Shown: piece after piece, positions 2,301-59,617 of the stretch
How positions within the stretch are numbered: the stretch's first letter is position 1
Layout of the letters: every line of letters begins with the position of its first letter
From: Diprion similis
Taxonomy: Eukaryota > Arthropoda > Insecta > Hymenoptera > Diprionidae
Assembly: GCF_021155765.1 (NCBI RefSeq)
Contig: NC_060111.1
Location: 6,048,481-6,112,480 of the forward strand
Length of the DNA: 64,000 bases
Reading direction: 5' to 3'
Made by a program: the position numbers and the translations under genes
Notes under the pieces: model-generated
Databases searched by the model: none
What the model saw: only the letters and a program-made list of their open reading frames with translations
Told to the model about the DNA's origin: nothing

Positions 2301-2555
2301 AAATCCCTATATTGCTGGGGATTTATTTTTCTGGTGAACGCTAACCTGCTCGGTAATACCGTCATGTGTAGTGTCACGTGGTGTGAGTTATTTAAAGTCC
2401 CGCTAATTTTTTTCCAACGCAGATTCAACGTCAAAACAATTAATCACCAACGATCTAGGGAATTTTCGCGCTGTTGGTACACGTCTTACTTAAGTCCAGT
2501 TCAGAACGCGAGAGAGAAACTTTTTTCAAGCAAAAAGCTGCACTTCTAGACACAC
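2301..2555. repeat. Dispersed 255 bp repeat, copy 1
   Basis: This stretch is matched in the same orientation by 44635-44889, at exactly the same length, with an estimated 85-90% identity by eye. It opens with a short imperfect palindrome around TCCCTATATTGCTGGGGA and carries a conserved CACGTG E-box at 2375-2380, at the same offset as in the second copy. There is no long terminal inverted repeat, no poly-A tail and no clear target duplication, so I cannot assign it to a transposon class; a SINE or a fragment of a larger element are both possible. Confidence 0.75.
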
Positions 2556-12521: not shown

Positions 12522-15500
12522 TCATTGGCGACTGGCTATATTCGTCCGGGCAGCTACTTCCTCGTTCAACGATTTTCGTCGAGGCCGAACCACAGGCTGT
12601 GAATGACTTGCGGTAATGTGAACGTGACAAACAGTACTGCCGTTCAAATTATCACCATGAGATTGAGTGTTCTGTCGCTTCGCGCTGCCATTATTTGAGT
12701 CCGCGCTGCTACCACCACAGCTTTTTCTCTTAACACCGTTAAACTCCTGCCTAAATAGCATCACGGAGGATCGGGTTTTCCGCGGCTGGTAATCTGGTGT
12801 GGCTTGCATCCTTTCGAGGGCAGCACGAAGTGGCAATAGTCCAACGGCAAACGGGATCTCCTTGCTCGGCGAATAGTCTATATAGTCCTCAATGTTGTTC
12901 TCGCTGTTTTCCAAACAGTCTGACATGTCACCCCACAGTACTCGACTCACAGAAGCTATGGTGTTGAATTTATTTGGAAACATTTCTCCTGGCTCTGGTT
13001 TTATTATTTGCAATTTATCCGGCTTCAGTTTACTATTCGCAATCACTTTTTCTTCATTTCTGTTGATATTCTTAGACAGCGATAAATGAGTTTTGCCTCT
13101 ACGTGCAATAAACTTGCTGTTACTTCGCAGTGATCTTTGTGGATCTGAGCATTTTGCCATGGAATTCAGTGGACTCGCTTTATTCTCATCTGATTCACCG
13201 TAATCTGAGTCCTTGTTCTTGCGTTTTATTGTTACAGAATTTTTCCGCATGTCTCTTCTTCTCTCCACATCCTGGAGAGTCTTCTCGTTTGTGGAATCGT
13301 CGTTTTCGTGTTGGCTCAGCCTCACACTTCTTCTTAATGTTGGTGGACACTGTATGGAATTGGGTCTGAAGATTGTCGGATCTAATTGCTCGTTTGTGAA
13401 AATCTCTTTCATTTGTCTGGCATGTTTATTAGTAAAGTTGATAGTAGTGTCGATGTCCACAGATTCAATTGAGACGGCACTTTGCTCCGAGGTATCACTA
13501 CCGACAAAATCCGATATGTTCTCTACGATTTTGGATCCTAAACCTAAAATATACTCGCTTTCCAGTTCAGTTTCATTCTTCGACGGTTCATCTTTCAAAT
13601 CTATACAATTGTTATTTGCTAGTTCGGGCATATTGTCAGTCAACTTGACTGGTCGCTTCTCAAGTCCTCCAATAAAGTTACGTCTTTTTTTGTGTGTGTA
13701 AACCTTCAAACATTTATCACCGGTTCTCGTGAATTCTTCAAATTCAGGCGTTGCCTGATAGATACTCTCACATTCTTTTTCAATGCGAGATTGAGATAAA
13801 GGCAAAGGGATATCTATACATTCATCGAAGGTTGGTTCGGTATTTACAAAATCGCAGCATTGTTCATAGAGCACAGGTTGCCGGTCACTTTTATCCTTGC
13901 TAAACATGTTGGTATCGTCATTTACACTACCTACAGAATTAATTCTGTGTATATCGAGTTTCAAACCCTGATTCATAGCACTCGGAACATCAGAGTACAT
14001 CTGCTCGATGTTTTTACGCGTAACCCCCAAGAAAGATAACTTCGCTTGGGATTGATCAGAATTTCTTGCATCAGTGTTGTGTGTTGGTGAATTGTTGTCA
14101 TTCAGATACGCTATATCAGTACTTTCATCTGTGTCGCTTCTGGGATATCTATCTACTCCAATTTTATTCCACGTTGAAGTCTGCCTACAGTCATTGTCAC
14201 TGAATAAACTGTAATCACTTTCTTCTGCCAAATCATCAGCATCTTCTTCACAAAATTCTTCTACGCAACCACCTGTTTCACCTGTGTTGACATTTTTAGC
14301 TCCGATCATATTTTTGATAATAGATGCGAGTTCTTTCACCTGAAAAAATAAATAATCACTGTAATTAGTACAATGTTGTCAGAATATTAGGAAATCTCAT
14401 GCTAGGTTTCTGATTGAGCATTACATTTCAATCACAACTTTTTCTAGGTGCTCAGTAGAGAAAATTTAAAACAAGGGTGTTTAGTTGATACATGAAAAAA
14501 CAGTTCTCAGTTATACAAAGTTTACATGGTACTAAATAAACCTAACTGAAAACATGCAGCTCAGTTTATAACGACTGCACTTAAAAAGAAGGTATTTCCT
14601 TGTTTTTATTCGGTGTATTTGCTTGACTCTTAAACAGATTTGAACAATGCAAACCGATGGAAAAATATACCAGATTTGACCAATCTCAAACAATTTATAC
14701 TACTCAATTACTAAGTATATTCAAGTTGTACATTGCAACATCATTTTGCTTTCCCGAAATATTTATGTTATAAGTTATTCTTGTTACCCGAGAGCGATGA
14801 GCGATGGAAACATGCACAACTATATTGTTATTGCCGAATGTAAAGTTATCAATTAGTGCGAATCCTTGAGGTATAGCAAGTACGCTAGTCATTTTCAAGA
14901 TGTTTAACTTCTTGCACCTAGAACAAGTTCGGCTTATGAATTTTTTGGAATGTAATATCGTCTTTACATGTTAAACGCATGAATATTGTACACCAAAGCA
15001 TTCAATTCAACTATTGAATTCTACTTCCACAGAGAATCGGTTATCTTATGATATATACAGTAATTATAATTGATCAGTGCACCACGCAAACTTACCTTAA
15101 ACACTATCGCAGCTTGAAGTAAGGGTTCCAAGTGCTGTTTCGAAATACTCGTTTCTCCGCAGTACATGAATTCAACCATCGACTTCAAAACTTCAAAATT
15201 TAAATCGCTAAATAGAATTGTCGGCTCCTGGCCCAGATCTTGTTCCAGCATTTCCTAATGTACACACATGATGAAAATTAGTATTACTTTTAGACATTTA
15301 AAATATTCTACATGAAATTTGACTGTTTAGTTTCATCGGTGTATCCAAATTCGTGCCAAACATCAGCGTACGGTCAACATAAGACGTAAAAACACAAGCT
15401 CAGAATGGAGGAATGAAAATAACGACCAGCCACAAAGAAATATAAACAGTAAAATGGGTTACCTCAAAGTAAAGACTGCACGATGCAAGTACCAGCTTGT

Positions 15501-35964: not shown

Positions 35965-36522
35965 TTACTTAGTCTGGAGATTGATGGGGTCCACTTTGGG
36001 TTCTGAAAAAATGAAACAATATTAATTTAAAGTTATCAACAACTATGATTGCATGCTTTGCAGATCCGATTGGTTGTTACGTTCATTTAGAAAATCTTAC
36101 AACTGAGTAAAACGTGATTCCACAACGTACCATCGAATTTGAACCGTGGGAATTCAGTCAAGTCTACTCCACCGCCACCGCCAGCTTGATTTGCCGCTTT
36201 CTCCAGCTCTGATTGCAGCTCTCTAATCGTTTCGGGAGCAGCATCTACAAGTGTTTTGCTGCCTCTGAATGGCGTGTAAAGAAAATTCACAGGTAAGTCG
36301 AGTCGTTATATTCAGCTGCGTATTTGCTTTACGGTATTCATTGAAAACAGATCCAGTCAGGCAAACTTACGTGTTCTTGGACCTGTATTCTCGAATTTTG
36401 TCAATGAAAAGTTGCTGAATCGGGTCGCTGGCCTTTTGGAGAGCTGGGGCCAAAATTCCAACATTACGTTTCAGGACCTTAGGGACCTCCTTGAGTCCGG
36501 TAGCAAGGCGGGAGCTCAGCAT
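35965..36522 (-). CDS. ATPsynCF6: ATP synthase-coupling factor 6, mitochondrial
   Basis: Subunit F6 of the peripheral stalk of mitochondrial F1Fo ATP synthase, which holds F1 against rotation. Three exons on the minus strand: 36522-36371, 36264-36131, 36002-35965; 324 nt, 107 residues, the usual size. Residues 1-~32 are basic and hydroxylated with no acidic residue until Glu12 (MLSSRLATGL start), as in a mitochondrial targeting presequence. The family core is KASDPIQQLFIDKIREYRSK, then KTLVDAAPETIRELQSELEK and, after a Gly-rich insert (QAGGGGGVD), FPRFKFDGEPKVDPI near the C-terminus. The last exon codes only 12 residues (EPKVDPINLQTK, counting the split codon) and was found by phase. The five-glycine run is a small lineage feature. 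Confidence 0.94.
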
Positions 36523-42510: not shown

Positions 42511-42980
42511 GGGTGGCGCAAAAAACCGACTGTTTTTTTTTTTTTTTTTGAGTCTCGTGTCACAAAATGTTAGTTTTTGATGTTTTAAGAGACCACTCCA
42601 AAGAACAGTTCAAAATTTGAATTTTGAAAGGTCGCTCATAATTTTTTTTAAATTTTTTGGTGCATTTCTTTAGATCTTTTCGAGCGACCTTTTAATATTC
42701 ATATTAAAATTTCATAAATTTTTTTTTCTTTAACTTAGTAAGAAAGAATCGATAACAATACACCACGACATGAATTAAAAATCAAACAAAATACTGAAAA
42801 TATAATTTTTTTAATATAATTTTTTGACGATTTTTGACATTTAAAAAAATTTGGAGCGACCTCTTAAAATTTTTTTTTTTTCGAGCTGTCCTTTGGAGTG
42901 GGACCTTAAAACATCAAAAACTAACATCTTGTCACACGAGACTCAAAAAAAAAAAAAACAGTCGGTTTTTTGCGCCACCC
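42511..42980. mobile_element. Foldback MITE with TA flanks, 470 bp
   Basis: The ends are GGGTGGCGCAAAAAACCGAC and its perfect reverse complement, with TA at 42509-42510 and 42981-42982. Beyond an internal poly-T/poly-A block the arms continue to match for ~100 bp more (GAGTCTCGTGT, GTTAGTTTTTGATGTTTTAA), then drift apart. No coding capacity. The shared GGGTGG start and TA flanks suggest the same superfamily (Tc1/mariner-type) as the element at 262-916, though the internal sequences differ. Confidence 0.88.
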
Positions 42981-44634: not shown

Positions 44635-44889
44635 AAATCCCTATATTGCTAGGGAATTATTTATCCGGCGAACGCTACCCTGCTCGGTAATGCCGTCATG
44701 TGTAGTGTCACGTGGTGTGAGTTATTTAAAGTCTTGCTCATTTTTTCCCCACGCAGATTCAACGTCGCAACAATTAATCACCAACGATCTAGGGAATTTT
44801 TGCGCCGTTGGTACACGTCTTAGTTAAGTCCGGTCCGGAGCGCGAGAGAGAAACTTTTTTGGAGAAAGAAGCTGCACTTCTAGGCACAC
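44635..44889. repeat. Dispersed 255 bp repeat, copy 2
   Basis: Direct-orientation partner of 2301-2555, the same length end to end. It conserves the opening palindrome TCCCTATATTGCTAGGGA (perfect here, worn in copy 1) and the CACGTG E-box (44709-44714). Copy 2 therefore looks closer to the ancestral form. Confidence 0.75.
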
Positions 44890-45317
44890 CACGGCTTACC
44901 CTCTATCCGTTTTCTGGAACAATATAGCCTGCAACGTGCCATCGAGAATCTTCCCCCCGAAATGTCACGGCCTTTTACGTTCTATTTAAAGATTATCACG
45001 TTGAGGATTTTCCCGCACTGTGCAGGAGTTTTCGTACAAGAATAGACAGACGGTACAGCGGAAAAACAAAGAGAAGAAATAAATCCTGCGGACAATATTA
45101 TTGAGCCATGAAATATACGAGAGGAAACGTATAATTAATTTTTAATTATCATCAATTGTTAGATTAAACGATATTTTCTTTAATCTCTGGGGTTTTTTTC
45201 TCTCGGTTTATGTTTAACACTATACTTAATGTTTTTTTTTTTTTCTTCAATTCTCCTTTTCATACAAACAAACAGGGATGAAAAAAAAATTTTTGTTTCA
45301 ATTCTTTGAGTCACAAG

Positions 45318-45911
45318 TTATTTTTCAGAGTCAACTTTCACGGCGAGATGGGATTCTATGGGTTTTGGGCTTGTTGATTGCGAATTTGATATCAGAATTA
45401 AAAAATTCAAGATGATTGGTCTAATACGGTGGACGAGAATTTCAAATCTCATCGAATACGGTCGGAAACCTATACGCAGGGGTTTTCGGGGTCGCGTTGA
45501 GTGGATTCGCGACTCTGAATTTCCAAAATCAGATTTCAGACCCGTAATCAGCGAGCCCGAGAACCCCTGGACGGAGTTTTTTTCTCCGAATTCGATCGAA
45601 TTTGAAATTTTCGTCCGTAATGTTGAATTCTGAAAATCCGACTTCAGATTCGCGATCAGCGAGCCCAGAAACTCACAATTTATGCAAAACATGCAGGTAT
45701 ACTTACGGAGGCTTAACTTTCTCGGCAACGTATCATTCCTTCAATTTCCACGATATTCTTCAATCAATTCCCTCCCAACAACAACAACAACAACAATTTA
45801 CATTCTATCGCAATAATTACTCTCGAGTATCGAAACACCGGAAACGGCAAGAATAAAAATCGCTAAAAAATAGGATATAAATTTCTTTAAATATTATTCT
45901 AAAAAAATTTC
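45318..45911 (-). repeat. Inverted ~600 bp repeat, copy A
   Basis: Near-identical, in opposite orientation, to 52388-52987. In the best-conserved 411 bp (45318-45728) only about 5 of 136 codons of the shared open frame differ. Identity falls off toward 45911. The interior is itself repetitive: a unit starting GGGCTCGCTGAT and including GACGAAAATTTCAAATTC occurs twice directly and once inverted. A (CAA)n stretch sits at ~45777-45797. The open frame shared by both copies has no recognisable domain and overlaps the internal repeats, so I treat it as non-coding. Confidence 0.88.
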
Positions 45912-46547
45912 TACAAAATAGGCGGCCGTAAGAATACTCACCAGGATGACTCAAAGGGTTTCCATAAAGCCGCAGACTGCTTGGCAGACAGACACGCCGC
46001 GCCTGTATCGTGACTGCAGTTTAAACGCGGTGTAACGCAGTGTGTTAGAGGTATCAGGAACTAGGTATACGGCTATAACCTACAATCTCTAGCCACCAAG
46101 GAGGACTTTACACCCTGCATCCATCCACACGTATATATATATGTATATATGTATATATGTATATGTATATAAAACGATGTGAAAACGCGCGTCACTACAG
46201 TTGTTTGACGAATGTTGTTGCTGTTTCGCGAATGAAACTTTGTACAATATCTACGTTACATGATACATTATTACATTGAATGACTGGTCGGAATTTGCTC
46301 CACATTGTATTATACTATATATGTATGTATGTACATGGGAATGTGTATATAGGTATATATACGGTTTTTTTTTTTTTTTTTTTTTTTTCTATTCATCTCA
46401 TATGGCGAAAAGAGAACGAGGTTTATTCATCGTTATTGTGCATTGTGATACAAATATCACTGATTTATGGATTGATTGGTCCGGACTTTCGAAGAAACAA
46501 AGAAATTATTGGATTGTACACAAATGATAATAATTGTCGTTATCGAA

Positions 46548-46550
<3 letters not shown>

Positions 46551-46621
<71 letters not shown>
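46551..46621. repeat. (AT)n microsatellite
   Basis: Roughly 70 bp of alternating AT; the opposite-strand Tyr-Ile open frames around it are artefacts. Confidence 0.95.
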
Positions 46622-46622
<1 letters not shown>

Positions 46623-46936
46623 GTATGTGTATGTATAGGAAGTTTTGAAAAAATTTTATACTGCGTACGCGTTACTGATGTGATTAAAATTTTTACTGGC
46701 ACAATAACTCGATTAGAAAAAAGAAATTAGTGTCAAGAAAATTTATATCAATTTTTTGGGCTAATCAAAAAGAAAGAGCGAGAGAGAAAGAGAGACGCTA
46801 CCGCGCGGGTTTTGTCTGGCTGGATGCTGTACTCTGAGTATCATCATTATCATCCTGATCGTCATCCACCATCTGTCGTCGTTCGTTCTTCGCTCCTACC
46901 GAGTAGGAGGCGGCAATATATGCGTACGGGGCATTC

Positions 46937-47530
46937 CACGCCAAATCGAACAGGTTCTGACCCTCCTCGGCCTCTTGGGTTTAGAAAACCATTTTTTTTT
47001 TTTCTCAGATTCCCCAGAAATCCGATTTTGGATTCGTGATCAGTCAACAGACAAAACGATTAGTGGATACGAATTTTTATCAAAATCCAAATGTTTTTTT
47101 TGTCTTTCTTTCAGCTTATCAAATACGTGAAATTTAAATCTTACAAATCTGATCTTAGGTTTGTTATTGGCGATTCAAAACAGCTTACTACGGTAAAAAT
47201 TTTCGTTCAAATTCACTCGATCATTTTCAATATATTATATGATAAATTTGATTTGATTTTTTGGAATTCTGTTACTTGAATATTTTGAAAGAGCATCGAA
47301 CTGAACAAAGCCAAAATCCAGTCGGTTCTAAGTTTGGAAAATTCGCGTCGATTTGAAAACGGTTGGAGGGTGATTCTCTAAACTTTAAAACGTGGAGATT
47401 TAGCGAAAACTCAAATTTTCATTCTCGGGTGATAACGACAACTTCCTTTGTTCTTTACTCTTAAAAATCGCTTACCAAAACCGAGAGGCCGAGGGTTAGA
47501 CCCTCGTCGAGTTTGCCTGGAATTGCCCAT
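46937..47530. mobile_element. Degenerate foldback element (possible)
   Basis: The left end GGGCATTCCACGCCAAATCG and, reversed, the right end around 47464-47530 match over ~60 bp (AAACC-AGAGGCCGAGG and TGG-AATGCCC words). The arms have many mismatches, and flanking target duplication is not clear. Inside lie words resembling the ~600 bp repeat at 45318-45911 (for example GATTCGTGATCA near 47031 and GGTTTGTTATTGGCGATTC near 47158). Confidence 0.5.
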
Positions 47531-47867
47531 ACATACAACGCGTGCAGCAGTCGACTCTGCAATGGTCGAGTTGCAGGAGGGATGGAAGGATGGAAGGATG
47601 GAAGGATGGAAGGAAGGAAAGTGGAGAAGTGCATGCATGGGATGAAAAAAGGATCTCAAGGGCTGACTGACTGCTCGTCGAGGGGGAAGGGGAAAGGGGA
47701 AAGGGGGGGAATAGGGGGGAATAGGGGGGGAAAAGGGAACGGAACACGCCTCGATTTCGAGGGGCGTCCTGATGGGTAACTTGATATTTTATTCTCGAAC
47801 CGTGTAGGTACTTGAGTATGTTGTCCTTGTTGTGCACAAATATAGGTAGGTATACACCTGCGAAAGG

Positions 47868-47892
<25 letters not shown>

Positions 47893-47942
<50 letters not shown>
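47893..47942. repeat. (GAAA)n microsatellite
   Basis: About a dozen GAAA units following a (GA)n tract (47874-47893). Confidence 0.95.
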
Positions 47943-47943
<1 letters not shown>

Positions 47944-49375
47944 GAGAGGAGGCATTGACTTTTGTTGCGTAGCCATCTCTCTGTGTATCGTACGTGATAC
48001 GGTAAAATTTTCGGAAGATTGGTTTTTTTTTTTTTTTATTTATTTATTTTTTTTTTTTTTTTGGGCCGTTAGATTTTTCGAAAAAGAAGGAATAATTTAC
48101 GTTTCAAAACCCAGACCATTTCTCAAAATCATTTCGTGTGTTTGGTTTTCTAACATTCTACTCGGTGAAAAAAAAAAAAACAAAAAAAAAAAAACGCGAT
48201 CTGAAGTATTGCCAACTTTTTTTTTTTTTTTGCCCACAACTTTCGTACGTCCGATTATCGTAATATTATATACGCGGGTATAAATTTTGTCTCGCCAGTC
48301 CCGTCGCATCTGTATACCTTCTGGACCATCGGAGAGAGAATCGAGGACGAGGACCGGAAGTCCTGGACGGAGGAAGGGCTTCCTTTTGCCGACGCGCATT
48401 CCCACTTATTTTCTCCTTATACCTATACTTGAAAAGTTAACGAACGGGAGAGGGAGATAAAATATTCCGCATACTTTCGCCGATTCGTGAAACGATCGCG
48501 TCATTTAAAGAAATATCCGGGAATTCCATGCGAAACCAATCAACGTCAGATACTCGCCAATTTTTCTTCCTTTTTTTTTTTTTTTTTTCTTTTTTCTTTC
48601 AAAATTAGCCGTCAACAAAAATGTTTTCCTTAAAAAATAAGATTTCATTTTTCATTTGTTGAAAAAAAATAAATAAATAAATTAAACAAATAATTCTGGA
48701 GTCAGAAATACTTTTCTACGCGATATATTTAAAATTTTTCGCGATGGAATAATCAATATGGCGTACAGAAAAGAAAAAAAAAAAGAAAAACAATCGTTAA
48801 TAAATTTTCAAGTTCACTCTGGTATTAATTTATTATATATATATATATATATATATAATAATTATCTTCACTGGAAATTGGCATGAATTATAATAAATAT
48901 CGTCTAATCTCGAGTATTGAGTGTGCGTCACGAGATAAAAGAAATTATGAATGAACGAACTATTATTATTGAAATTTGCGATTATCAATGTTTTTCGCCA
49001 GACTTCGTGGAATTTATTTAAATATCATGCAATGAATTAGTAGACCTCGCGTGATAACCGAATTATAATAATCATATTAATGAAAGAAATTAGTGTGATT
49101 ACGACGATTATCGTAAAATTATGTTTATCAATACTACGAATTCATTAATTAATTAACTCAAAGCTAGAGCTGACCAGTAATACTATTATGCAATAATTTA
49201 TAATCTGAAGAATCTTAATATTCTGAACTTGAATTCGAATTACATATTTTATTAATATTGAATTACAATAATTACTATATATATATATATATATCATGTA
49301 ATTATGGATAATATAGTGAGAAATTAATGGACGATGGTGGATGATAATTAAAATGAATAAAACTAGTTTATTATT

Positions 49376-49377
49376 GA

Positions 49378-49416
<39 letters not shown>
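49376..49416. repeat. (TTA)n microsatellite
   Basis: Fourteen or so TTA units. Confidence 0.95.
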
Positions 49417-49419
<3 letters not shown>

Positions 49420-49689
49420 CCGTCGTTCAAAAAATGATATATAAGTAATATTTTATCAATCTAATTTAATTTATACAGCTGGTTAAAAAGAATATTTAAT
49501 TATATCGATAATAATTTATCAAGCAGCTATATATTTATAACGACTGACGAGCCTTGAAAATTATTCTTGTTGTTGTTGTTTTTTTTTTTTTGTTAAACAT
49601 TTTTATGCATTCCTTTGCTGGTCAAATAATAATGGGTTTGTTTTTTTTTTTTTTTTTTCTGTTTGTTTGTTTCATGTTTTCTCGCACAG

Positions 49690-49796
49690 TCATGGATATC
49701 GATTCATTGTACGATTACGCGGAGGAGGATCAGGACTTCTACGAAGAAAGTCCTGGGATACGGAAGGGCTATCCTATCGATCATCGTTCGATCAAG
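49690..49796 (+). CDS. Short coding exon of an unidentified gene
   Basis: A long pyrimidine tract and CACAG acceptor (AG 49688-49689) precede TC then ATG at 49692; 35 codons follow to a strong donor GTAAGA at 49797. The peptide is highly acidic and Tyr-rich (MDIDSLYDYAEEDQDFYEES, then PGIRKGYPIDHRSIK), balanced in codon use and unlike the homopolymer-derived frames around it. The exon ends in phase 0. It may be the first coding exon, with the leader at ~37.4 kb as 5' UTR, or an internal exon entered in phase 1. I do not recognise the family. No downstream partner exon was found before 64000, so the following intron would exceed 14 kb, as is common in insect neural and developmental genes. The exon sits between the two inverted repeats at 45318-45911 and 52388-52987. 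Confidence 0.55.
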
Positions 49797-50018
49797 GTAA
49801 GAAACAATTATTTCATGATTTTTATTCGTCGAAATATCGACAATTATTTTTATTTATTTTTATTTTAATTTTTCTCTCACCCCGTTTATTTTTTCTTCTC
49901 ACTCTTTTTTTCACGGCGATTTATGCGTTACGTGTAATATTATCACGCTGCTGCAGGAAACGAGGAAAGTCTAACTGCCAGTCTTAAACGACCGTTTCGG
50001 GGAGTTAAAGTTGCGTCA

Positions 50019-50021
<3 letters not shown>

Positions 50022-50083
<62 letters not shown>
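50022..50083. repeat. (AT)n microsatellite
   Basis: About 60 bp of alternating AT, ~225 bp after the donor of the lone exon. Confidence 0.95.
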
Positions 50084-50086
<3 letters not shown>

Positions 50087-50485
50087 TAAAAATAAGTACG
50101 GTCAGATTCTTGTCTGTGACCGGCACACCGTTAAATTAGCCGAGGGGTCAGAAAGCTTGTGACATGATTAACTGTTGTGACGTGTGGTAGGGGAAAAAAA
50201 AACAGAATAACAACAACAATAATAATAATAATAATAATAAAAATAATAATAATAAAAAACAGCAATTTTTATATATAATAATACACAAGAGCGACATCTT
50301 GTTAGAAAAAAAAACGAAGATTTGGGTTTAACATATATTTTTATTTTTTTTTTTCAATATTCAAGTATCGAATTTTCTTCATACACTTATGCGTACGAAA
50401 AAATCATTGCAATCTGAGCAAAAGTAGATATTTTGATTTTTTGACTCGTTTCCTTGATAAGACATGCAGATAAAAGTAGACACAT

Positions 50486-50517
<32 letters not shown>

Positions 50518-52387
50518 CGTATAAACTTTACCAGATTCACAAAGTTTTCATTTGTTGAAAATTATAATTCAATTAATTTTATTCATACGCATACGCAGCT
50601 CTTCATCGCGGTGTAATTATTGGATTCGAAAATTTTTTTTTCTCTTCTTCCATCGCGCCGTTTCAATTTTCCTCGACGCGTTTTTTGTTTCGGGTTTTCC
50701 TTTTTTTTTTCTTTTTTTTTTCCCCCCCCCCGCCGTCTTACGAAGCAATGAACACATTTAACCGGTATCTTTAAAAATTAGATTTGAAGATATATATATA
50801 TATATATTAGGATATATCGATATTTATTTTGAAATATCAGAAACGTGTAGATTTTTTTTTTTTTTTTTTTTGTAATAACAATCGTTATAATCGACGATTA
50901 ACTCGGTTATTATTATATTAATTAGTTCCGAAAATGCGTTGAACCGAAACGCTACAAAATAATATATCATATTGTAAAATGGAGAATTATTGAAAATCGT
51001 TTTAAAGTTGAAAATTTTTTTTAGTTATTTTCTCTCTCATAAAGGAAATCAACCTTGTCGTAAAATATTTGCAAACGTTATTCCCGTCTGGTCCTATAAA
51101 CATTTATAAATATGTAAGCGTATTTGCATGGGTGGTAGATAATAGAGATTCGAAACTGATAAAAGTAGTCGAAAGCATAGAAATTACTCTCGACCCTGGA
51201 ATTGGTGATTCATTGCAGGGTTGTTTGCTCGTTGTTATTGCGTTAATTGCTTTTAGTCCCAACTGAAAATCAGACGTGCCGGTTTTTGTCCTTCACTTCA
51301 ACCTACTCTTTCTCTTTCTCTTTCTCTTTCTCATTCTCATTCTTTTATTCCCGATTTTACAAGCGATTTGGGACCGATTCCTGTCGTCTGTCCACTTAAG
51401 GGTACGTCGTACTCTTACCTTTACCGACCGAGCGAACTCACCCATTTTTTTTGTTTTTTTTTATCGTTAAAATGATGAAATCAGGGAATTGTCAGGGAAT
51501 TTCGAAATCCACTGGACAAAAATGTGGAAATCTCAGGGAATTTCATGGGGTATTTGGAATGTAATAATTTATATTTAATAATTGGTGAGAAGAAAACAAA
51601 TTTTTTTCTTTCAACTTTCTCGATTCTGGATCTCTGATGAAAGAAGAAGAAGAAAAAAAATATTATGATTTATTAAAATGATTTATTATTATATTATTAA
51701 CAATTTTGAATCGATTTTGTAACGAATCATCGATTATATTCAAAAAAATTTTATTTATTATTCACGTATTTCGTATTAGAAGAAAAAACGGAAAAAAAAA
51801 GAAGGAATTTGTACCTTGTACGAAATTTTTTGCAGATTATAGAAATATGATGAGAAATGTGACGATTTGATAGATTATAACGAACGTGCGACTGTGTAAA
51901 ATAAAAGCAAGAGAATTTGAAAAAGTATTAATTTCAAACTGACGAACCTTCTTTCGAGAAGGGACCTGCAGCAGCAGCAGGTCACTGAAAACCCGAGACG
52001 AAAGTCTTTCCCTCAGGCTGAGGCTCCCACGGTTCTAACAGTAACACAGCAGCAGCTGACACCTTTTATTTTACTCTTCACCTTTTTCGACGACGCGACG
52101 CGGCACTCTCTCACGTATTTTAACTACCATCATCTGCCACCCGCGTTCATTCATTCATTCATTCATTCATTCATTCAGTCAGGCTTCAGAGTTTTTCACT
52201 TTGGCGAGGTAAACAATATCGGATGATTGATTTGGTTTTTATTTATATTCACATATGCACAGAAACTGGAGTTTACGAAGTTTGAATGACGAGCAAATAT
52301 TTCTAACAATGAGTCGATGTATCTAATCGTCGAATTTAGGTCATATCAAACTAATTAATTTTTTACACTTTGATTCATCTATTTAAA

Positions 52388-52987
52388 TATCAATTTTTTT
52401 TTAATAATATTTCGAGAAATTTTTATCGTATTTTTTTGCGCTTTTTTATTCTTGCCGTTTCCGGTGTTTCGATACTCGAGAGTAATTATTGCGATAGAAT
52501 GTAAATTGTTGTTGTTGTTGTTGTTGGGAGGGAATTGATTGAAGAATATCGTGGAAATTGAAGGAATTATTCGTTGCCGAGAAAGTTAAGCCTCCGTAAG
52601 TATACCTGCATGTTTTGCATAAATTGTGAGTTTCTGGGCTCGCTGATCGCGAATCTGAAGTCGGATTTTAAGAATTCAACATTACGGACGAAAATTTCAA
52701 ATTCGATCGAATTCGGAGAAAAAAACTCCGTCCAGGGGTTCTCGGGCTCGCTGATTACGGGTCTGAAATCTGATTTTGGAAATTCAGAGTCGCCAATCCA
52801 CTCAACGCGACCCCGAAAACCCCTGCGTATAGGTTTCCGACCGTATTCGATGAGATTTGAAATTCTCGTCCACCGTATTAGACCAATCATCTTGAATTTT
52901 TTAATTCTGATATCAAATTCGCAATCAACAAGCCCAAAAACCACAGAATCCCATCTCGCCTTGAAAGTTGACTCTGAAAAATAAAAT
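52388..52987 (+). repeat. Inverted ~600 bp repeat, copy B
   Basis: Reverse-orientation partner of 45318-45911, with identity highest at 52574-52984. It carries the same internal arrangement (two direct GGGCTCGCTGAT units at ~52637 and ~52746, and a third unit inverted near 52920) and a (GTT)n tract at ~52507-52526 matching the (CAA)n of copy A. No terminal inverted repeats or target duplication typical of a transposon were seen at the ends. Confidence 0.88.
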
Positions 52988-54414
52988 GATATTTGAAATT
53001 TTCGTTCACCACATTGCATCTATAAATCTCGAGTTACAACTCAATTATTATATAATTTTTCTTCTGCGTATTAATGTTGAATGAAAAAATATCGTTAAAT
53101 CGTTGTTATTATCTTGTTATATTTTCTAAAACGTTATCACTCCGTCATTCATTCGCAGTCAAGTCGAGTCGAGTCAAGTCAAGTCAAATGATGTATATGA
53201 AAATCCGAGAGCGAGATACGTACGTACCGGAATTTGAATTTCAGCTCCAGGAATAGCCGAAGATCTTTATCGTTTCCTGCTTTCTTATTCAAACCGCGTT
53301 ACATGCGCGCCATTCTCAAAGCTCAACTCGCACCTGTATAATATTATAACCATGGCCCTAAAATAAAAAAGATTAAGGAGGAGAAAAAGAAAGAAAGAAA
53401 GTAAGAAATAAAGAAAGAAAGAAAGACCGCGTATATACCAGCGTCTTCAACCCCTCTCTGGCAGGCAGATTTAAAAGAGGAAGAAATAAAAATAAAGAGT
53501 GTATAAGGATTTCATGAATGAAACGTAGGTTAAAAATAGAAGACGACGTCCGTCGTCGTTTAATTTCCAACCATAACCTGCACTTAATGTCTTTTTCAAA
53601 TGAATTTTATTTCTTTTTTCTTATTATTATCCACGTGTGACGCGCTCGATGCGCCAATTTTCTTTATGATACTTATTCGTGATAATAGGAGGTCAAAATA
53701 CATTTCTTATACCAAGTTTCAGATCGATCGGCGGTAGGTATGCGTTTTTCGGAAGTACACCCACTTTTTTTTTTTGTTTTTTTTTTTTTTTCTTCTCACC
53801 CCACGCAGATCTCTTTTTCCTTGAATTCTCCGATCGCCGTAGGGTAATTGGAGTTCAGAGTATCGGATATAGTTTTTTCTACGTATTTATTTATTTTTTC
53901 CCTTTTTTTGTCCTTTTTCCTTTTTTCGTTATCCCTCGACTGTTTCTCGCATGCAAAAAATACAACCAATTCAGATTTTAGAAAAAGTAGCCCAATTCAG
54001 CAACAATTGAATTGAGTATACCTGTTAATAGTAATACGTGTGTAATAATGAAGATTTTTAGTTGTTTGCAAAAAAGCCCCCGTATAAAAAATTTTTCAAT
54101 ATCTATATATAACAATTTCGTTAATCGTACAAATCGTTTCTCATTTTTTTTTTCAACTTTTTCGCAAGCATTGCTACGACGACGCGTTAATTCCTACACT
54201 CTTTTCGCGATTAAATTTCGTACAAATTTTTGAGGCTGTTCGAAGACGAGGACAAAATAAAAAACAAAGAAGTTATCAGGATTCAAATTTAACGACTTTT
54301 CAATGAAAAATAAGGAAAATGCAATAATTTAATGTTTGGTTTTCGATATATATATATATATTTGTTCCATAATTTTGCTTAAGGTGGCACACCCTGTATG
54401 TATATGTATACATT

Positions 54415-57792: not shown

Positions 57793-59116
57793 TCAACGTC
57801 ACATAATTAATCGTTATTAATTTGCAATCGTTCGGTATTGCGATAATAAGAGATACTCAAGTCAAGTCAAGTCAAGTTAAGTCAAGTCAATTTCCATGTG
57901 AAATACAATGTAACGAATGAAATTGAAGAGAAAAAAATCAACAAAGTTACGATGTCATTGTTAATTGAACAAAAATGAAAAAAAAAAAATTTTATTTTCA
58001 AACTACACAAATCCAATTTGATCCAAGTCTAACATCAATCAATACTTTCTCTGAATTCAATATTCTTACAATTAAATATATCTAAATTTTTTACAAGAAA
58101 ATTGAAATTTTCTTCGGTTATTAACCATTTTTTTTTTCGTCTTCTTCTTCTTATTATATGAAACTTTGACGGTTTTTTAGATTGGCCCGGAATGTTCCAT
58201 ATGTATCGTTGTTTTATTATCGTTATTCTAGTATTTGCTATGCGAACTTTGGCCAGCCTTTATGTGTATACATATATATTGTATAATTGATACGTTAGTT
58301 TTGCAATTTGAAAAAGAAAAAAAAATAGAATATCATAGAATGGAGAATACGAAAATTGTGTAATAAATGTCGGAGAAATATGTTTATTTTTTACTTATTT
58401 TTTTTTATGTTGGTCAATTGGAATTTTTCTCTTTCATCGAATTGTTGTAACAAATTTTAAAATATTTGCAGTGAATTTCGAAGAGGAATTAAAAGACAAT
58501 TGATAATGATCTATGAAAGATCAATGTATACAATATGGTGTTTTCATTTCATATATATATATATACGTAAAGACATTCAAATTATAAGAGGATCAATACG
58601 AAATTATCGTTGTGCAGGTGCAATTTATCAAACACGCTTTGTTCGAATGAATTACAATGTATATAGTACATATAGGTAGAAACCAAAAATTGAAATTAGT
58701 GATTTGCAATGACATCGATGAATTGTCGCGCGCAGCTTGTTCGCTCTCTAGTCTATAATCACGATCAGTCGAAACTATCAATTTCCATCGTTCGCGTTGT
58801 CACGTCGTTTCTATATATGTATACCTACGTCTCATATTGTTGGTGAAAATATATTATTCATTTCACCACGTTAAACCTTGGAAATTTGTACGTTTTGCGC
58901 AATAAACGAATAAATAAATGAATATATTTTTAACCAAAATGTACATTCATTGTAAAGTTTCTCGGCGTGTTGTATAACGGATGGATATTAAATCGTGCGA
59001 TCATATTCGATGATTGCTGCAGGGTTGTTCGAAGTTTGCGGAGAAAAGGGGAAAATAAAATAACCAAAGGGAAGAAAAAAAATCTGTGTCTATATACATA
59101 CAAACACAAACATATA

Positions 59117-59584
59117 CAGGGTGAGTCAATTGAAACGGCGCGAAGGGGAGGAGCTTGGTTGACGAATCGGGCCGCGTCCCTCAGCCAATCTCGAGCGAGT
59201 CAATTGAAACTCCGATAATGTGGGGGAAATCGGTTGTCTCGACGTCAAATCGAGGCCCGAAGTCTTTACCTACAGGTATCCAGTGGTTGGGAGAAACGAA
59301 GTCAGGATGTGACGACGAGCGAGGCACGACGACGAGACAAGACGAGCCTAATTGCCGACGTTTCGTGACGTCGTCTTTCCTTCGTCGTCGCATCTTCCTT
59401 GTCGTTTCTCATCCGCACTCGTTACCCAGGTGCAGACTTCGGGCCTCACTTTTTTACCTCGAGACAAACGAACTCCCCCCCCAATTATTGGAGTTTCGAT
59501 TGACTCGCTCCAGATTGGCTGAGGGACGCGGCCTGATTCGCCAACTAAGCTCCTCCCATTCTCGCCGTTTCAATTGACTCACCC

Positions 59585-59586
<2 letters not shown>
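59117..59586. mobile_element. Foldback MITE with TA flanks, 470 bp
   Basis: The ends are CAGGGTGAGTCAATTGAAAC and its perfect reverse complement, with TA outside each (59115-59116 and 59587-59588). The arms stay alike for ~170 bp each (shared words include GGCCGCGTCCCTCAGCCAAT and GAGGCCCGAAGTCT). The terminal word GAGTCAATTGAAAC recurs ~80 bp inside each arm. It is markedly GC- and CpG-richer than its surroundings, and has no credible coding frame. A non-autonomous Tc1/mariner-type element is the best fit. Confidence 0.88.

Positions 59587-59617
<31 letters not shown>

What the first reader, a model, noticed from the sequence alone, without database searches (positions are those of the whole stretch)
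45318..52987. Near-identical inverted repeats bracket a lone exon: possible circular RNA or exon-skipping switch
Two ~600 bp repeats in opposite orientation lie ~3.8 kb upstream (45318-45911) and ~2.6 kb downstream (52388-52987) of the 107 bp exon 49690-49796. In the best 411 bp only about 5 codons of 136 differ. In a pre-mRNA the copies would pair into a long duplex, placing the exon's acceptor and donor in one loop. Complementary flanking intron repeats are known to promote back-splicing and to be ADAR targets. The sequence shows the repeats; the RNA effect is inferred.
Basis: partly seen in the sequence, partly recalled or inferred. Interest (0 to 1): 0.7.

Follow-up and report, generated by a model that had tools for sequence, protein, structure and literature searches.

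The report
Inverted transposon copies homogenised around exon
Two old, non-coding jumping-DNA copies lying in opposite directions around one exon appear to have been kept almost identical by copying sequence from each other, with a drift towards G and C; whether their RNA pairs up and changes splicing cannot be told from DNA alone.

Summary
In detail: 45318-45909 (+) and 52392-52984 (-) match at 577/593 positions (97%) in opposite orientation. They are cores of two copies of a ~665-bp, non-coding, hairpin-shaped element with piggyBac-type ends; first looks list 470-936 candidates genome-wide. Among 58 aligned copies (1653 pairs, mean identity 78.3%, sd 2.2) this pair ranks first. Similarity stops inside the element: 7 differences in 508 core columns, 34 in the 108 outside; the ends are no more alike than ends of unrelated copies. 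The core also has the highest A/T-to-G/C rate of the 58 copies; the ends do not. This fits non-allelic, GC-biased gene conversion between two old, separate insertions. A second inverted pair, on contig 8, is also a mosaic, but without clear GC bias.

The bracketed exon looks real and may belong to an ETS1/2-class (pointed-like) gene whose ETS exon lies 130.7 kb downstream. In an RNA crossing both copies the long duplex is favoured (-1034 against -343 kcal/mol). Circular RNA, skipping and editing stay untested. New member of a known kind (Alu pairs, primate palindromes); moderate interest.

The parts
45298..45962 (+). Left element copy: piggyBac-type MITE with degraded ends (TCAATTCTTTGAGTCA ... 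TGACTCAAAGGGTTTC)
   Evidence: alignment to the family consensus; 13/16 and 14/16 matches to the consensus ends
45318..45909 (+). Homogenised core, left arm of the inverted repeat (the last ~40 bp are less alike)
   Evidence: 577/593 to 52392-52984; low-difference interval 7/508 against 34/108 outside
45363..45671 (+). Internal imperfect palindrome (self-hairpin) of the left copy
   Evidence: opposite-strand family matches at query 46-354; RNA fold of 45318-45670 at -143.7 kcal/mol, z -8.5
49690..49796 (+). 107-bp probable exon in the loop; opens TC then ATG (MDIDSLYDYAEEDQDFYEESPGIRKGYPIDHRSIK), ends in phase 0
   Evidence: splice-like borders; phase-compatible probable next exon L048:2732-2927; ETS exon on the same strand 130.7 kb on. 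Gene membership is inferred
52362..53008 (-). Right element copy: 3' end recognisable (13/16), 5' end hardly so (8/16), may be truncated there
52392..52984 (-). Homogenised core, right arm of the inverted repeat

Best explanation
Two copies of an old non-autonomous piggyBac-type element inserted separately, in opposite orientation, about 6.5 kb apart. Since then the inner ~550 bp have been homogenised by non-allelic gene conversion (one copy used as repair template for the other), probably more than once, with a bias towards G and C. The ends lay outside the conversion tracts and diverged like ordinary old copies. Shown: family membership, the mosaic of a near-identical core with family-average ends, and the A/T-to-G/C excess confined to the core. 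Inferred: that recombinational repair did it, and that it was repeated. Any effect on splicing of the enclosed exon is a possible by-product, not shown.
For: Core against ends: WL-WR identity 98.3%, 98.9% and 95.3% in consensus columns 22-200, 200-400 and 400-560; among pairs of the 56 other copies this is reached by none of 1539, none of 1540 and a fraction of 0.0008 of 1333 (the contig-8 pair). In columns 0-22, 560-600 and 600-665 it is 50%, 81% and 75%, reached by 95%, 22% and 62% of such pairs. Scan: 7 differences in 508 columns inside the best interval, 34 in 108 outside; 0 of 99 permutations as strong. Base bias: core A/T-to-G/C rate 0.151 and 0.139 against mean 0.067, max 0.100 in 56 others; reverse rate 0.099 and 0.093 against mean 0.161, min 0.113. 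Shared derived changes 46 to G/C, 15 to A/T, 14 neither (Fisher against the others' 1261:1604, p=1.3e-6). Counting only changes rare in other copies, 33 to 7 (82.5% to G/C), others mean 56%, max 73%. Within the same copies core differs from ends: WL 53:16 against 10:11 (p=0.015), WR 49:14 against 4:15 (p=1.2e-5). A second inverted pair, C8:1905175-1905851 (-) and 1908553-1909224 (+), 2.7 kb apart, is second of 1653 pairs; its likeness stops at the element borders and it is a mosaic: 10 differences in 356 columns inside, 45 in 298 outside, 0 of 99 permutations.
Against: No population or sister-species data, so no conversion event is seen directly. The contig-8 pair has no clear G/C excess (shared derived 17 to 15 in columns 200-600, 4 to 3 in 22-200), and its 5' third (86%) is also above average. 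Other near pairs are only slightly raised, whatever their orientation: C3 2786(-)/2795(+) 82.7%, 2772(+)/2786(-) 82.5%, 2772(+)/2795(+) 82.4% (ranks 17, 22, 27); the direct pair 7237(-)/7246(-) is ordinary (79.1%, rank 615). Adjacent partial copies on C1, C10 and C13 were not compared. The right copy's 5' end is hardly recognisable, so truncation there cannot be excluded; just beyond the core (columns 560-600) the copies still share some derived states. Ancestral states rest on a majority consensus. The Fisher tests treat linked changes as independent, and the permutations ignore rate variation along the element.
Confidence: 0.75

Rival explanations
1. Recent local duplication or local hop: the right copy arose from the left (or the reverse) not long ago, and the ends differ because of later deletion or damage.
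For: 75 shared derived substitutions across the core and shared derived indels. A different element pair nearby (59106-59588 and its partner in L048) is 99% identical over nearly the whole element, so local spread of elements may occur here.
Against: The right copy keeps its own 3' end, 13/16 to the consensus terminal repeat, and lacks ~21 bp that the left has; terminal identity is at the level of unrelated copies. A hop needs intact ends. Mutation alone does not explain a G/C excess limited to the core.
Confidence: 0.15
2. Selection keeps the core: the paired RNA (or a hairpin small RNA) has a function and changes are removed or compensated.
For: Strong duplex and hairpin energies; position around an exon of a probable regulatory gene.
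Against: The two copies are the lowest and third lowest of 58 in identity to the consensus (83.1%, 84.1%), so they changed fast together rather than being held still.
Confidence: 0.06
3. A small G/C-rich subfamily of the element, of which these are two members.
For: Of 75 shared derived states 51 are found in under 10% of the other copies.
Against: The search with the left core gave no third close copy among the 40 scored of 470 candidates: the next by score is 73% over 518 bp. Members of a subfamily would share their ends too.
Confidence: 0.04

Closest known systems
Non-allelic gene conversion between neighbouring Alu elements (Aleshin and Zhi 2010, known to me here only as cited in PMC8230782)
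   Same: Neighbouring copies of a dispersed, non-coding repeat become more alike than distant copies, over a range of about 10 kb
   Different: Here a DNA-transposon MITE in a presumed insect; the two strongest pairs are inverted, but the sample of near pairs is too small to say that orientation matters; G/C bias measured inside one tract
GC-biased gene conversion in primate sex-chromosome palindromes (PMC3723533, PMC8981503; passages)
   Same: Inverted arms kept alike by conversion, with replacements skewed to G/C; inversion is a rare side product there
   Different: Arms here are ~0.55 kb, not many kb, and are cores of separately inserted transposons
piggyBac-derived MITEs
   Same: TTAA at the borders, terminal repeat beginning CCC, many short non-coding copies
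   Different: No transposase locus with the same pair of ends among 12 examined; the window copies have lost TTAA
circRNA exons flanked by inverted repeats
   Same: Complementary copies on both sides of an exon
   Different: No RNA evidence here; copies lie 2.6 and 3.8 kb from the exon

Membership tests
piggyBac superfamily MITE | TTAA target-site duplication | tested here: met
   Met for the family, not for the two window copies: exact TTAA in 25 of 58 copies at the 5' border, 34 of 58 at the 3' border, 14 of 58 at both; the window copies read TCAA/TTTC and TGAA/TAAA
piggyBac superfamily MITE | Terminal inverted repeats beginning CCC next to TTAA | tested here: met
   Consensus ends TTAACCCTTTGAGTCA / TGACTCAAAGGGTTAA; at least 13/16 matches in 35 of 58 (5'), 41 of 58 (3'), 27 of 58 (both); left window copy 13 and 14, right 8 and 13
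piggyBac superfamily MITE | A related autonomous element with the same terminal repeat in the genome | tested here: inconclusive
   12 loci of about 4 kb examined, of 24 PF13843 matches; several have TTAACCC ends of another sequence (TTAACCCTTTTCGG, TTAACCCATTAGCG and others); none has the 5' end within 3 mismatches, and one (L080) has a 3' end at 3 mismatches without a partner
piggyBac superfamily MITE | Mobilised by a piggyBac transposase | not testable with these tools
   needs a transposition assay
Non-allelic gene conversion pair | Mosaic: a tract far more alike than the rest of the same homologous element | tested here: met
Non-allelic gene conversion pair | G/C bias within the tract | tested here: met
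   for the window pair; not seen for the pair on contig 8
Non-allelic gene conversion pair | Arms more alike within than between species | not testable with these tools
   no relatives are held for this genome
circRNA exon driven by inverted repeats | Complementary flanking repeats able to pair | tested here: met
   by energy calculation only
circRNA exon driven by inverted repeats | Both repeats lie in introns of one transcript | tested here: inconclusive
   downstream side plausible; no upstream exon was identified, and none was sought by gene prediction
circRNA exon driven by inverted repeats | Back-splice junction reads | not testable with these tools
   no RNA data

The most novel reading that the evidence does not exclude
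Conversion keeps a long RNA duplex alive around the start-codon exon of a pointed-like ETS gene, so that a G/C-biased recombination process maintains a splicing or editing switch that mutation alone would have eroded.
Probability: 0.06. Interest if true: 0.75.

Novelty: new member of a known kind. Interest (0 to 1): 0.38.

Why it matters
The pair offers a natural test of how short and how far apart two inverted repeats can be and still be homogenised, with an internal control (the unconverted ends of the same elements). It warns that near-identical inverted repeats around an exon are not by themselves evidence of recent insertion or of an RNA function. If conversion does maintain such pairs, it also keeps alive long double-stranded RNA and a substrate for inversion of a coding exon.

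Tried and rejected
Coding explanation for the mirrored 136-aa frames: rejected. One of the two was given to Pfam and had no match over cut-off (best E 0.12), and the copies belong to a decayed dispersed family.

One large transposon with ~600-bp terminal repeats spanning 45318-52984: rejected. The arms are copies of a dispersed element with ends of its own, and the interior holds a probable host exon.

Structured RNA or tRNA: no Rfam match at gathering score and no tRNA found in the window.

Gene identity: Pfam searches with the short exon peptide and the probable next exon, and a PDB search with the latter, gave nothing. The gene link rests on strand, splice phase and the ETS exon downstream. 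That the end of the second exon resembles pointed is recalled, not tested. The PNT-domain search (PF02198), which could have strengthened the link, was asked 11 times and never answered. A crude motif scan of the + strand from window position 36000 to C7:6162480 (78 kb) gave one unrelated match; the 66 kb between there and the ETS exon was not read. One literature search for pointed gave nothing used here.

Rows dropped and sampling: four partial copies (L025, L041, L044, L045) were left out of the 36-row MAFFT alignment behind the consensus, but are in the 58-copy counts. Of 61 copies found, 3 repeats of the same loci were removed. The 58 are the two window copies, all 38 other scored copies and part of the further hits; each of these searches scored 40 of 470-936 candidates, so this is no random sample and no full count. 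One Fisher test against an invented 1000-change reference is not used. Notebook entry 2 calls both window copies the least consensus-like of 58; the right one is third lowest.
Full report
Observation. The window is G000:C7:6048481-6112480 in an unnamed 269-Mb genome. The inverted pair is real: 45318-45909 against 52984-52392, 577/593 identical, 1 gap; the inner 553 nt are 98% complementary with 6561 nt between the arms.

What the repeats are. The left core finds 470 first-look candidates in the genome, 40 of them scored, 78 matches; three other family members as queries gave 772, 896 and 936 candidates, 40 scored each. Aligning 36 copies gives a ~665-bp consensus with ends TTAACCCTTTGAGTCA and TGACTCAAAGGGTTAA. 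Of 58 copies 25 have TTAA at the 5' border, 34 at the 3' border, 14 at both; neither window copy does. TTAA target sites are the rule in piggyBac elements of bees, where many elements begin CAC rather than CCC (PMC10140906, passages). The genome holds 24 matches to the piggyBac transposase family PF13843. Of the 12 loci examined none shows the same pair of ends, though several begin TTAACCC; one has a lone 3' end at 3 mismatches. Copies are imperfect internal palindromes: many match the query on both strands, and the left one folds alone at -143.7 kcal/mol, z -8.5.

Mosaic. Over 58 copies and 1653 pairs mean identity is 78.3% (sd 2.2); WL-WR (left and right window copy) is first at 95.7% over 579 aligned columns. 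Cut into segments, the core is 95-99% identical, while the end segments are 50%, 81% and 75%, within the range of unrelated copies. The best low-difference interval (columns 20-546) holds 7 differences in 508 columns, with 34 in 108 outside; 0 of 99 permutations were as strong.

Base bias. Against the consensus, the window cores have the highest rate of change from A/T to G/C (0.151, 0.139; 56 others mean 0.067, max 0.100) and the lowest the other way (0.099, 0.093; others mean 0.161, min 0.113). Of 75 shared derived changes 46 go to G/C, 15 to A/T, 14 neither. The ends of the same copies do not show this: WL 10 against 11, WR 4 against 15. Core G+C is 0.406, surroundings 0.33-0.35. The copies are lowest and third lowest of 58 in identity to the consensus, which speaks against constraint.

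A second case, and weaker ones. On contig 8, copies 2.7 kb apart in opposite orientation are second of 1653 pairs (92.1%). The likeness stops at the element borders, so the insertions are separate; columns 221-576 hold 10 differences in 356, the rest 45 in 298. The first 200 columns are also above average (86%), and shared derived changes in columns 200-600 are not G/C biased (17 to 15). Three nearby copies on contig 3 are slightly raised in both orientations (ranks 17, 22, 27) and one direct pair is ordinary (rank 615). Too few near pairs were compared to say that orientation matters.

Precedents. Conversion among neighbouring Alus within about 10 kb is described in PMC8230782 (passages), citing Aleshin and Zhi 2010, which is not held. 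G/C-biased conversion in inverted arms is known from primate palindromes (PMC3723533 and PMC8981503, passages), where inversions are rare. The listings that I saw (15 of 64 papers; 12 of 115; 12 of 210; 12 of 14; 8 of 96) show by title and start of abstract no paper on such a MITE pair in an insect; I claim no more than that.

Gene context. Upstream lie exons of a glutamyl-prolyl-tRNA synthetase (WHEP-TRS repeats) and of DNA polymerase epsilon. Exon 49690-49796 ends in phase 0. A probable next exon is at L048:2732-2927, acceptor ending ttag, donor gtgagt. Of 12 ETS-domain matches in the genome one is on this contig, C7:6228969-6229208 on the + strand, and its translation matches ETS1 structures best, E=1.7e-61. 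That all three belong to one pointed-like gene is inferred. CpG observed/expected is above 1 in 69 of 76 steps of 500 bp between 34 and 72 kb; together with genome size and the gene content this suggests a hymenopteran, which is an inference.

RNA consequence. If one transcript spans both copies, the duplex is favoured: -1033.8 against -343.4 kcal/mol, and 577 of 594 left-arm bases pair with the right arm in the fold of 45200-53100. Local hairpins would form first during transcription (inference), which equilibrium folding ignores. In honeybee, complementarity near the exon did not explain circularisation, although cofolding was correlated with it (PMC6347836, passages).

Verdict. Observation confirmed. 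Best explanation: conversion between two old inverted MITE copies, G/C biased in this pair (0.75). The RNA switch remains a low-probability, testable reading (0.06).

Noticed in passing
window 59106-59588 and L048 (C7:6120189-6120682): A second kind of foldback element (ends ACAGGGTGAGTCAATTGAAACGG, ~78% self-complementary) occurs as an inverted pair 99% identical over nearly the whole element, ~12 kb apart; a third copy at C7:6330369-6330892 is 97% identical to it, while the other matches over 300 bp are 80% or less (40 of 79 candidates scored). Recent local spread or conversion.
   Followed up: partly
window 2304-2555 and 44638-44889: Direct repeat of 252 bp at 90% identity, 42 kb apart.
   Followed up: no
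window 42606-42787: 182-bp repeat with 93-96% identical inverted copies beyond the window, near 66, 76 and 94 kb of the extended region.
   Followed up: no
42.7-47.5 kb beyond the window end (C7:6155179-6160003): LTR retroelement with 344-bp direct repeats 99.4% identical and long gag/pol-like open frames on the minus strand, between the window exon and the ETS exon. Observed only.
   Followed up: no
17.8-18.5 kb beyond the window end (C7:6130318-6130991): A ~670-bp region that is a 93% self-palindrome over 626 columns.
   Followed up: no
window 12525-14378 (-): A 618-aa open frame without any Pfam match at E 0.001.
   Followed up: partly
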